Under the pieces are notes generated by a model. That model had not been told where the DNA came from, ran no database searches, and worked only from the letters and a program-made list of their open reading frames with translations. A stretch of DNA of 64,000 nucleotides from Mycolicibacterium chubuense (GTDB lineage: Bacteria; Actinomycetota; Actinomycetes; Mycobacteriales; Mycobacteriaceae): positions 1-64,000 of the forward strand of contig NZ_JYNX01000025.1 in the NCBI RefSeq assembly GCF_001044255.1, in the 5' to 3' direction. Shown here one piece after another: positions 27,181 through 38,214 of the stretch; the stretch's first letter is position 1, and each line of letters starts with the position of its first letter. The position numbers and the translations under genes were made by a program.

Positions 27181-29183
27181 GCCGACGCCGTCGCCGGTTG
27201 CGGCGCGGTGGGCGACAACTGCGACAACACGTGCTCACCGAACGCATCGATGAACGGGGCCTGGTGTCGACCCACGAAGTGCAGGTACAGCTCATCCCAG
27301 CCCTGCTCGATGTCCTGGTGAAGCCACGCGGCATGTTGGCGCAGATCGCTCGAGACGCGCACCGACTCCGCAACCCGCTCGCGGCTCACCGCCTCGCCGA
27401 TGACGTCGAACGCCTCGACGCTCTCGGTGTCCCAGCAGACCGGCGGAGCGAAGACGTTGTTGCGCCACTGGTCATGCGCGACGGCCAGCGCCTCCTCATC
27501 GGTCGGCGCCCAGCTCAGGTGAATCTGAAGCCTGGCGGGACCCCGTCCCCCCGCCTCGCGGTAGGCGTCGAGGACCCGGCGGGGTTTGTCGCCGGGTTGA
27601 TTGACCGTGATGAGACCGTCCGCCCATGCGGCGTGGCGGGTAGCGGTGTCCGGGGTCACCGCGGGGCCGACCAGGTCGGGCACCGCCTCGGGCAACGTCC
27701 ACAGGCGCGCCCGGTTGACATGGACGAGACCTTCGTGGGTGACCTCTTCGCCGTGCAGCAGTCGCCGGATCACCCCGACACACTCGACGAGGCGCCGATC
27801 GCGAACCTCCTTGACGAATTCTTTGATGCCCAGTGGGCCGAGCTCGCGTCCGTAACCGGAGCGGTTGACACCTCCGAAGGGCAACTGCGGTTGTGAGCTG
27901 GTGGGGTAATTGATCCAAACCATGCCGGCCTCCAACCGGGCGGCCAGGTTCTGAGCCCGCTGCTCGTCCTTGCTCCACACCGAAGCACCGAGAGCGAACG
28001 GTGTAGCGTTGGCGAGTTCGATTGCCTCAGAATCGGTTTCGACCCGGTAAACCTGCGCCGCCGGTCCGAAGAACTCCGCACGGAAGGCCGGATTGTCCGG
28101 TGTGATATCGGTGAGGATGGTCGGCTCGACGTAGGCGCCTGGGCGCTCGATGCGGCTACCGCCGAGGACCAGCGTGGCGCCGCCGGCGACGGCCTGTTGT
28201 ATCTGATCGATCAGGCGTTGCGCGGCCTGCTCAGAGCTGAGCGGGGCGAGGGTGGTGGCCTCGTCGGTCGCGTCACCCGGCCTGAGCGCGACCATGCGTT
28301 CTTGCAGAGCCTGCAGGAAGCGGTCGTAGAGGTCGCCCAGGACGATGAATCGTTTCGCGGCGACGCAACTCTGGCCGCAGTTCGTGACGCGGGCGGTCAC
28401 CGCGAAGTCCAGCGTGCGCTCGAAGTCCTCATCGTCGAGCACGATGAACGGGTCGCTGCCGCCGAGTTCGAGCACGGTCTTCTTCACCTCGTGTCCCGCG
28501 CGCTCGGCGACCGACTGGCCGGCGACATCGCTCCCGGTCAGCGAGACTCCGCGCACCAAGGGATTCGAAATGATCCTTTCCACCGCGCGACCGGGCACGA
28601 GTAGGTTCACATAAACGCCGCGTGGCAGGCCCGCGTCGGTCAGCAGTTTCTCGATCGCGATCGAGCATTGCGGACACTGGCTCGCGTGCTTGAGCACGAT
28701 GGTGTTGCCGGCAGCGATATTGGGCGCCGCGAAGCGTGCAGCCTGGTATATCGGGAAATTCCATGGCATGACGCGGAGCAGTACGCCCAATGGTTGGAAG
28801 CGCATCTCCGCGCTGCCCGCGTCCACTTCCAGCGGTTCGGGCGCGAGTAGCTTCGCAGCGTTCTCCGCGTAGTAGCGAAAGATCTCGGCGCTCAGATTCA
28901 CCTCGCCGCGCGCTTCGTGACGAAGCTTGCCCATTTCCAAGGTCACCAGGCGGCTGAGCTCATCAACACGTTCCAGCATCAGGTCGGCGGCGCGGGCGAG
29001 CGCGGCCGACCGCTCACTGACGGGACGCTCGCGCCAGAACAGGAAGGCCTGGTGGGCGTCATTGACGGCGTGATCGACCTGTTCGTCGCTCATCGGGTTG
29101 AACTCGCGCACCAGCTCTCCGTTGGCCGGGTTCACCGTGGCAATGGGGGAACGGTGTTCGATGTTGACCGAATGTATAGCCAT
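27177..29183 (-). CDS. Chimera: succinate-semialdehyde-type dehydrogenase fused to the C-terminal half of an LLM oxidoreductase
   Basis: A 668-residue reading frame with two unrelated parts. Residues 1 to about 456 are a GabD-type NAD(P)+ aldehyde dehydrogenase: TVNPANGELVREF, the active-site Glu in KTVLELGGSDPF, Cys273 in NCGQSCVAAKR, and the usual end FGGVNRSGYGRELGPLGIKE. From about residue 458 (RDRRLVECVGVIRRLL) the sequence is the second half of a TIGR03885/FGD-like LLM oxidoreductase, including WADGLITVNQPGDKPRRVL. The matching first half lies at 37861-38214. The dehydrogenase part is essentially complete and may be active; the LLM part is half a TIM barrel. GGAGGCGACC precedes the ATG at 29183. 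The stop overlaps the GH13 start. Confidence 0.85.
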   Translation of the reverse strand: MAIHSVNIEHRSPIATVNPANGELVREFNPMSDEQVDHAVNDAHQAFLFWRERPVSERSAALARAADLMLERVDELSRLVTLEMGKLRHEARGEVNLSAEIFRYYAENAAKLLAPEPLEVDAGSAEMRFQPLGVLLRVMPWNFPIYQAARFAAPNIAAGNTIVLKHASQCPQCSIAIEKLLTDAGLPRGVYVNLLVPGRAVERIISNPLVRGVSLTGSDVAGQSVAERAGHEVKKTVLELGGSDPFIVLDDEDFERTLDFAVTARVTNCGQSCVAAKRFIVLGDLYDRFLQALQERMVALRPGDATDEATTLAPLSSEQAAQRLIDQIQQAVAGGATLVLGGSRIERPGAYVEPTILTDITPDNPAFRAEFFGPAAQVYRVETDSEAIELANATPFALGASVWSKDEQRAQNLAARLEAGMVWINYPTSSQPQLPFGGVNRSGYGRELGPLGIKEFVKEVRDRRLVECVGVIRRLLHGEEVTHEGLVHVNRARLWTLPEAVPDLVGPAVTPDTATRHAAWADGLITVNQPGDKPRRVLDAYREAGGRGPARLQIHLSWAPTDEEALAVAHDQWRNNVFAPPVCWDTESVEAFDVIGEAVSRERVAESVRVSSDLRQHAAWLHQDIEQGWDELYLHFVGRHQAPFIDAFGEHVLSQLSPTAPQPATASA
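27811..27813. other. Left edge of the 10-kb insertion (TTG)
   Basis: Here the dehydrogenase sequence (reverse strand GAATTCGT) meets the LLM sequence (reverse strand CAAGGAGGTTCGC). The same trinucleotide, TTG on the plus strand, is found at the other edge at 37859-37861. This is either 3 bases of microhomology or a 3-base target duplication. Confidence 0.6.
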
Positions 29184-29648
29184 GGTCGCCTCCAGAATGC
29201 GCAGGTGGGTTTGTAGCTCGTGCAGCTCCTCCGGGTTCCCGACGCATGGACTTGATCGCGCCTTCAACATCGGATTCGTCGGGCCCGTCGGTTCGTGCGC
29301 GCACCGTCCCACGCCCTATGCCGGTCATTGCGCCGGGTTGGGATCCCAGCGCGCCCATGCCTTGCCGAGGAGGTTGATGGCTGTCGCGAGGCTGTAGCTC
29401 ATCGCGTGCAGCGGATTCCGACGCGCGGCGTTGTGGATGGATCCCACGTTCGATGCTTTCTGCATGGCAGCCGACATCTTTCGAAGTGTGGCAATCCGGT
29501 CTGCGCGAATCTTGAACCCGGCTGTACAGATTTCGCGGTGCCAATCCGCCCCGTCAGTACCACGGCCGAGGGTCTAGCCACCCGCGCTGCTCAGCTGACC
29601 GTTTTCGGGCGCATAATCGATGTGTCCGTCTGGAGACTGGGGTGCGCG
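29184..29648. other. Intergenic region with a possible gene remnant
   Basis: This 465-base gap inside the inserted block holds no complete gene that I can support. On the minus strand an open frame from 29577 to a TGA at 29325 encodes about 83 codons of ordinary-looking protein without a good start; it is listed separately. The Shine-Dalgarno sequence of the downstream dehydrogenase is at its left end. Nothing else is recognised. Confidence 0.5.
29325..29477 (-). CDS. Small ORF, possible C-terminal remnant of a lost gene
   Basis: The ATG at 29477 opens a 50-residue frame with MSAAMQKASNVGSIHNAARR and, near its end, LLGKAWARWDPNPAQ. The frame stays open back to 29577 (with ICTAGFKIRADRIATLRKM), but no start codon is found there, and a TAG closes it. 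The amino-acid mix (amphipathic helix, Trp, balanced charges) looks coding rather than a shadow frame. It may be the tail of a gene truncated by rearrangement, or a real short protein. I do not recognise the family. Confidence 0.3.
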   Translation of the reverse strand: MSAAMQKASNVGSIHNAARRNPLHAMSYSLATAINLLGKAWARWDPNPAQ

Positions 29649-37835: not shown

Positions 37836-38214
37836 GGGTTTTCTCCAAGTCGCTGCGATTGCGCGGCCAGACCTCACCGGTGACCCGCTCGTTGGACGCC
37901 TCGCCCGAGCCCAGGGCCGCCCAGAACCGGCCGGGGAACATCTGAGCCAGCGTCGCGATCGCCTGGGCGATGATCGCGGGGTGATAGCGCTGCCCCGGCG
38001 CATTGACGACGCCGAACGGCAGCCGGGTCGTCGCCAGTGCGGCCCCGAGGAACGCCCACGCGAAGCCGGACTCGGCCTGTCGTTCGCTCCACGGACTGAA
38101 GTGGTCAGAGGACATGCCCGCGGTGAAGCCGGCATGCTCGGCCTGCTGGACATCGCGCAGAAGCTGCGCGGGATCGATCTGCTCGTGCGAGCAGTGGAAT
38201 CCGATGACGGTCAT
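37612..38214 (-). pseudogene. N-terminal half of a split LLM (TIGR03885-like) oxidoreductase gene
   Basis: The first 118 codons (38214 to 37861) encode the start of an FMN-dependent LLM oxidoreductase related to F420-dependent glucose-6-phosphate dehydrogenase: MTVIGFHCSHEQIDPAQLL, AGMSSDHFSPWSERQ, and PGRFWAALGSGEASNERVTG. After VWPR the frame runs into unrelated sequence, overlaps the start of the dehydrogenase gene out of frame, and stops at 37612. The remaining 211 codons of the same protein are at 27180-27812. Rejoined, the protein would be about 329 residues, close to the family size. The half protein lacks most of the TIM barrel and is unlikely to work. Confidence 0.85.
37859..37861. 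other. Right edge of the 10-kb insertion (TTG)
   Basis: The reverse-strand coding sequence of the LLM gene runs GTCTGGCCGCGCAA up to here and then turns into the leader of the dehydrogenase gene. Joining CGCAA to GGAGGTTCGC at the left edge restores the reading frame as PRKEVRDRR. Confidence 0.6.

What the first reader, a model, noticed from the sequence alone, without database searches (positions are those of the whole stretch)
27811..38214. One LLM oxidoreductase gene split into two exact halves by about 10 kb of foreign genes
The N-terminal 118 codons at 37861-38214 and the C-terminal 211 codons at 27180-27812 belong to the same TIGR03885-like protein. Removing 27814-37858 rejoins them in frame (PR then KEVRDRR) and also restores a three-gene operon: GH13 (38269-40491), LLM, GH13 (25501-27180, start overlapping the LLM stop). 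A TTG stands at both edges, either a 3-base duplication or microhomology. There is no transposase, integrase or terminal inverted repeat. The precise reconstruction makes chance very unlikely.
Basis: partly seen in the sequence, partly recalled or inferred. Interest (0 to 1): 0.88.

Follow-up and report, generated by a model that had tools for sequence, protein, structure and literature searches.

The report
Foreign gene block splits oxidoreductase gene
In one mycobacterium a block of about 10,000 bases carrying amine-breakdown genes has recently been pasted into the middle of an oxidoreductase gene without the loss of a single target base and with no recognisable mobile element, most likely by end-joining repair of broken DNA.

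Summary
One TIGR03885 LLM oxidoreductase gene is cut into 118 + 210 codons by a net 10,048 bp. The halves abut with no missing or extra codon in 82 of 83 relatives' loci. Mycolicibacterium chlorophenolicum shows the empty site within 20.6 kb of synteny; G054 shows it too. Of 54 genus genomes (396 searched) with the N-half, 52 others have long frames, one is cut by a contig end, and only the window's own is seen split. The halves show no sign of decay, so the event is recent. No terminal inverted repeat and no transposase or integrase among the proteins scanned. The insert is a mosaic of at least four blocks that are not neighbours in the genomes where they were found. Its left end cuts a semialdehyde dehydrogenase 20 codons early and fuses it in frame to the LLM C-half; its right end cuts the leader of an amine-catabolic operon. 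The edge TTG is also native in three donor-like relatives, so microhomology or duplication stays open. Best explanation: illegitimate (end-joining) capture of mycobacterial DNA. Read coverage could not be checked.

The parts
37861..38214 (-). N-terminal 118 codons of the TIGR03885 LLM oxidoreductase; its frame then runs on into the insert to 37612
   Evidence: TIGR03885 profile 1-114, E 4.3e-60; 97% identical to G054, where the open frame is 339 aa
27180..27812 (-). C-terminal 210 codons of the same LLM gene plus stop; now the tail of a fusion frame
   Evidence: TIGR03885 profile 116-315, E 4.2e-69; 92% identical to G054
27811..37861 (.). Inserted segment with one TTG at each edge (27811-27813 and 37859-37861); net 10,048 bp
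   Evidence: Empty site in 45 of 45 relatives aligned: right edge always 37859, left 27813 or 27812
27814..29186 (-). Block D: succinate-semialdehyde dehydrogenase-like gene, native last 20 residues lost, fused in frame to the LLM C-half
   Evidence: 88-90% nt to G282, G273, G261 from 27811; native tails there; best NCBIfam model PRK09406 E 7.5e-161, 536 bits, below its cut-off of 730
29279..29452 (.). About 174 bp absent from this place in the three relatives of block D; minus strand encodes an orphan 47-residue protein tail
   Evidence: Alignment break in L043-L045; no match at E <= 1e-6 in 197 other genus genomes, none in plasmids
29580..30117 (+). Block C: short gene (155 aa from 29649) resembling part of glucose-6-phosphate dehydrogenase
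   Evidence: zwf E 5e-10, positions 107-176 of 486, below cut-off; 87-89% nt to G051, G091, G264, G163, three of which were compared and have different surroundings
30127..31956 (-). Block B, gene 1: alpha/beta hydrolase-like protein (weak)
   Evidence: Abhydrolase_6 E 5.7e-4, below cut-off; 83-84% nt over about 1.1 kb to G019 and G197
31958..32647 (+). Block B, gene 2: TetR-family regulator
   Evidence: TetR_N E 1.2e-14; beside the hydrolase gene in G019 and G197, 73-75% nt
32774..34257 (-). Block A: APC-family amino acid permease, frame broken into 33682-34257 and 32774-33820
   Evidence: C-terminal piece AA_permease_2 E 2.6e-21, N-terminal piece no family; intact in G019, G084, G035, G082
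34285..36024 (-). Block A: FAD-dependent oxidoreductase, amine-oxidase/CrtI-like
   Evidence: Amino_oxidase E 2.1e-20; CrtO and CrtI models below cut-off
36021..36365 (-). Block A: 114-codon open frame, same place and length in G019
   Evidence: weak HapK match E 3.3e-4, below cut-off
36405..37835 (-). Block A: gamma-aminobutyraldehyde dehydrogenase, start 23 bases from the right junction
   Evidence: PRK13473 694.6 bits, over its cut-off of 615; 93-96% aa in G019, G084, G082, G035
25501..27180 (-). Downstream flank gene, alpha-amylase family (GH13, trehalose-synthase-like); start overlaps the LLM stop
   Evidence: Alpha-amylase E 2.6e-76; TIGR02456 E 2.9e-152, below cut-off
38269..40491 (-). 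Upstream flank gene, maltose alpha-D-glucosyltransferase (trehalose synthase) type
   Evidence: TIGR02455 884.7 bits, over its cut-off of 719.4

Best explanation
A linear piece of mycobacterial chromosome, about 10 kb, was joined into a double-strand break inside the LLM gene by illegitimate (non-homologous end-joining type) recombination. The target lost no base; the piece itself was broken at its ends, inside a semialdehyde dehydrogenase gene on the left and in the leader of the aminobutyraldehyde dehydrogenase operon on the right. Three bases (TTG) shared by target and donor at the left join either guided the join or were duplicated by fill-in of a staggered break. The piece was already a composite of at least four gene blocks, probably an amine/GABA-type catabolic patch in an unsampled relative. 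Effects: the LLM enzyme is broken, the amine operon has lost its own upstream region and now lies behind the trehalose-synthase-like gene and the LLM N-half in the same direction, and the truncated dehydrogenase reads into the LLM C-half. Shown: exact split, empty sites, blocks elsewhere in relatives, truncation of both donor ends, recency. Inferred: linear form, end joining, ready-made composite, transfer from another mycobacterium, changed expression.
For: Gap of 0 nt in 82 of 83 loci; constant boundaries in 45 of 45; empty site in M. chlorophenolicum at 93.6% and 96.6% and in G054. No terminal inverted repeat: 87.6% of 1000 random segment pairs score as high (printed before that script failed at a later step). 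Donor ends are interrupted: 3 of 3 relatives carry 20 more residues on the dehydrogenase, and a motif conserved upstream of block A in 4 of 4 relatives is absent from the window. TTG is native at that point in 3 of 3 relatives of the dehydrogenase. The genome has Ku and, 2.4 kb from it, a LigD-type ligase domain over its cut-off. G054 has no match to the insert at E <= 1e-60. Own-only changes are 1 synonymous/0 nonsynonymous in the N-half and 9/2 in the first 196 codons of the C-half, like the G054 (5/1, 8/1) and M. chlorophenolicum (5/0, 13/1) branches.
Against: In 13 of 13 mapped laboratory integrations in M. avium the target lost 2 to 669 bp (PMC3511198, section 17 read); here nothing is lost. 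Three or more shared bases arise at 7.3% of random joins, so TTG is weak evidence. No genome seen holds the whole insert, so the composite donor is assumed. Ku and LigD are widespread in mycobacteria (recalled) and do not mark this event.
Confidence: 0.7

Rival explanations
1. The 10 kb was moved by a transposase or recombinase acting from elsewhere, leaving a 3-bp target duplication (TTG).
For: TTG stands once in intact relatives and twice here, and no target base is lost, which is how a clean transposition looks.
Against: No inverted repeat at the ends; the left end is ordinary dehydrogenase coding sequence continuous with that of three relatives; TTG is already there in those relatives; no transposase or integrase family among the insert proteins scanned.
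Confidence: 0.1
2. Assembly artefact: unrelated stretches joined in a draft of 96 contigs.
For: Draft genome; the halves show no decay; the permease frame is broken once, which could be a base-calling error; reads were not available.
Against: The two edges share only TTG; one strong place for each insert block in this genome (besides it one 71% match of about 400 bp to part of block B); both junctions cut the same gene at the same point; listed contamination is 0.03.
Confidence: 0.07
3. The DNA was not acquired from outside but moved within the genome from a native site (a different source; the joining mechanism could be the same).
For: Twelve genomes have both block A and the LLM gene, so the ancestor could have had both; blocks B and C are not compositionally unlike the left flank (73% and 63% of 300 host segments at least as far).
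Against: Near relative G054 has no match to the insert at E <= 1e-60; block A is unlike the left flank (0 of 300 segments as far) and block D nearly so (4%). The former native site could not be looked for.
Confidence: 0.15

Closest known systems
Illegitimate recombination of linear DNA in mycobacteria (M. avium random mutagenesis, PMC3511198)
   Same: Non-homologous insertion of a DNA piece into coding regions, no special sequence at the sites, fragment usually inserted whole (12 of 13)
   Different: There a 2-kb electroporated marker, and all 13 mapped events lost 2-669 bp of target; here about 10 kb, natural, no target base lost
Homology-facilitated illegitimate recombination (PMC3240628; only the listed start of the abstract was seen)
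   Same: Foreign linear DNA joined illegitimately at one end
   Different: That process needs homologous recombination at the other end; here the edges share at most 3 bases
Composite transposons and genomic islands (recalled)
   Same: A block of accessory metabolic genes interrupting a host gene
   Different: No insertion sequence, integrase, inverted repeat or tRNA/ssrA attachment site found at the edges

Membership tests
TIGR03885 LLM oxidoreductase (the target gene) | Whole-protein score over the curated cut-off of 398.7 bits | tested here: not met
   The halves, searched apart, score 203.6 and 233.2 bits with complementary ranges; a broken member, not a working one
Illegitimate/end-joining insertion | No homology longer than a few bases at the junctions | tested here: met
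   3 bases at the left, none evident at the right, judged from donor-like relatives
Illegitimate/end-joining insertion | Loss of target bases at the join, as in the M. avium experiments (typical, not strictly required) | tested here: not met
   0-nt loss here against 13 of 13 with loss in PMC3511198
Illegitimate/end-joining insertion | Host has Ku and LigD | tested here: met
   Ku 184.3 bits; NHEJ ligase domain 302.1 bits, over cut-off, same contig
Illegitimate/end-joining insertion | Dependence of the join on Ku/LigD | not testable with these tools
   Needs experiment
Transposon | Terminal inverted repeats | tested here: not met
   Score 8 over 80 bases at each end, reached by 87.6% of 1000 random pairs
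Transposon | Transposase gene | tested here: not met
   None among the insert proteins scanned; other small frames were not scanned
Transposon | Short target duplication | tested here: inconclusive
   TTG at both edges, but also native in three donor-like relatives
Integrative element or prophage | Attachment site in a tRNA or ssrA gene | tested here: not met
   The only tRNA/tmRNA gene in the window is ssrA at 54482-54849, and its 3' end occurs once
Integrative element or prophage | Integrase or phage genes | tested here: not met
   None in the family scans; no megablast match to 50,697 phage records

The most novel reading that the evidence does not exclude
The insert was put together in one repair event: at least four separate chromosomal pieces plus a 174-bp scrap were captured end to end at a single break, a bacterial counterpart of the multi-fragment break repair known in eukaryotes.
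Probability: 0.08. Interest if true: 0.75.

Novelty: new member of a known kind. Interest (0 to 1): 0.42.

Why it matters
Laboratory DNA inserts at random in some mycobacteria, but a natural case with a clean empty site in close relatives, donor-like sequences for most of the insert and base-level junctions is useful. It shows that a kilobase gene block can enter a chromosome with no visible mobile element and no target loss, land behind a host operon and create a fusion frame. It gives a signature to scan for elsewhere: two halves of one gene with a zero-codon gap around a non-mobile block.

Tried and rejected
Plasmid origin: megablast of the insert against 72,556 plasmid records gave 8 records with short matches only, 7 Sphingobium (aminobutyraldehyde dehydrogenase genes, 47-385 bases of the query) and 1 Variovorax (37 bases). 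Phage origin: no megablast match. Paralogue halves: rejected, because the own genome has one match for each half at the thresholds used, 1e-30 and 1e-40. A mobile role for the 174-bp piece: only a chance-level hit (THAP9_C, E 0.13), nothing in NCBIfam, PHROGs, 197 other genomes or plasmids. Papers: 'TIGR03885' is in none of the 5.39 million held; the listings showed no natural case like this by title and abstract start, which covers open-licence papers only. PMC3240628 was searched for three terms, none found. A split but working LLM made of the N-half and the fused C-half was considered: there is no evidence for it, and the lack of decay is explained by recency.

Full report
What was checked. 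The window lies in a 5.95-Mb draft genome of 96 contigs, on contig C25, which is 183,812 bases long. The two proposed halves were searched apart. The N-half (37861-38214, minus) covers positions 1-114 and the C-half (27183-27812, minus) positions 116-315 of TIGR03885. A search of 118 genus genomes with the C-half found a match at E <= 1e-30 in 16, the own included; the 15 others have open frames of 325 aa or more. A search of 396 genus genomes with the N-half found a match at E <= 1e-40 in 54; of the 53 others, 52 have open frames of 325 aa or more, from which intactness is inferred, and one, G375, lies 93 bases from a contig end with a frame of 180 aa and cannot be judged. The flanking genes are of the trehalose-synthase type.

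Empty site. Of 83 relatives' loci (15, 68, partly the same species), 82 carry the two halves in one frame with a gap of 0 nt; in L138, a short metagenome contig, no N-half was found. In DNA alignments of 45 of these loci the right side starts at 37859 in all 45 and the left ends at 27813 in 37 and 27812 in 8. M. chlorophenolicum DSM 43826 aligns from 17166 to 27813 at 93.6% and from 37859 to 47856 at 96.6%, the two sides meeting at one point. G054 aligns over 22454-27813 and 37859-42299 in the same way. The net insert is 10,048 bp.

What is in it. Block A (about 32776-37858): aminobutyraldehyde dehydrogenase, a 114-codon frame, an FAD oxidoreductase and an amino acid permease. Of 396 genomes, 35 (own included) match this stretch at E <= 1e-250; 19 others hold it nearly whole in one piece at 78-90%, and no listed match runs past window position 32764 toward block B. 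Twelve genomes have both block A (two of them in pieces) and the LLM gene; in the 8 where both are on one contig they lie 0.65 Mb or more apart. Block B (30167-32618): TetR regulator and hydrolase, side by side in G019 and G197 on other contigs than block A, and in G082 the hydrolase part is about 0.29 Mb from block A on one contig. Block C (29580-30117): a short gene resembling a piece of glucose-6-phosphate dehydrogenase, found in many of the 396 genomes (capped listing) with sharp edges and different surroundings in the three compared. Block D (27811-29278 and about 29453-29572): semialdehyde dehydrogenase with its leader, 88-90% in G282, G273 and G261; block C lies about 1 Mb or more away in G282 and G261 and on another contig in G273. 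In all three about 174 bp (29279-29452) is missing from block D; here it encodes an orphan protein tail. No genome seen has all four blocks.

The ends. Left: the three relatives' dehydrogenases continue for 20 residues beyond the break, while here the frame passes straight into the LLM C-half and makes a 711-codon open frame. Right: 23 bases upstream of the aminobutyraldehyde dehydrogenase start the sequence changes to LLM. A motif conserved upstream in 4 of 4 relatives is gone, and with up to 3 mismatches nothing like it is in the window. The ends share no inverted repeat. TTG is at both edges; the dehydrogenase has TTG at that point in 3 of 3 relatives, so it may be donor sequence. Three or more shared bases occur at 7.3% of simulated random joins, so this is suggestive only.

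Origin. G054 has no match to the insert at E <= 1e-60. In tetranucleotide make-up block A is farther from the right flank than any of 300 equal segments of the left flank, block D than 96%, but blocks B and C are ordinary (73% and 63% at least as far). The nearest sequences seen for the four blocks are from the same genus. Gain from another mycobacterium is the simpler reading, but movement inside the genome is not excluded.

Recency. Codons private to this genome: 1 synonymous and 0 nonsynonymous in the N-half, 9 and 2 in the first 196 codons of the C-half, much like those private to G054 (5/1 and 8/1) and M. chlorophenolicum (5/0 and 13/1); four sequences were compared. The gene was under constraint until shortly before sampling. 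This also fits misassembly, which remains a minor rival.

Mechanism. No mobile element was found by family scans, repeats, plasmid or phage comparison. Ku and a LigD-type ligase are encoded. Illegitimate integration of linear DNA is documented in mycobacteria: in M. avium 13 of 13 mapped events lost 2-669 target bases with no special sequence at the site (PMC3511198, section 17). The zero loss here is unusual against that yardstick and is the main point against a plain end-joining account. I put the insertion itself at about 0.93 and end joining of a ready-made fragment at 0.7; the intragenomic rival concerns the source and overlaps with it.

Function. The named enzymes would fit a route from an amine through aminobutyraldehyde and GABA to succinate semialdehyde and succinate (recalled knowledge of these families); a GABA transaminase was not seen among the proteins scanned. 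The permease frame is broken, so the captured pathway may not work fully. The LLM gene is broken and no second copy was found at the thresholds used.

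Noticed in passing
29580-30117; L145:9365-10008: A short gene like a piece of glucose-6-phosphate dehydrogenase recurs in many mycobacterial genomes (capped listing). In G051 it lies between two copies of the 3' end of ssrA, with ssrA itself at 17751-18116 of the same locus, so there it seems to ride on an ssrA-targeted island.
   Followed up: partly
32774-34257: The permease reading frame is broken by an indel relative to four relatives whose frame is intact; real mutation or sequencing error not settled.
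   Followed up: partly
29279-29452: Orphan stretch of about 174 bp inside the dehydrogenase leader, encoding on the minus strand the end of an unknown protein with no match in 197 other genus genomes or in plasmids.
   Followed up: yes
42299-42300 and 44317-44327: G054 has about 0.9 kb and 1.8 kb more than the window at these two places.
   Followed up: no
L019-L022, upstream of the aminobutyraldehyde dehydrogenase: A motif close to AGTGTTSAACAGTTGACAT is conserved upstream of block A in four genomes, possibly a promoter or operator of this operon.
   Followed up: partly
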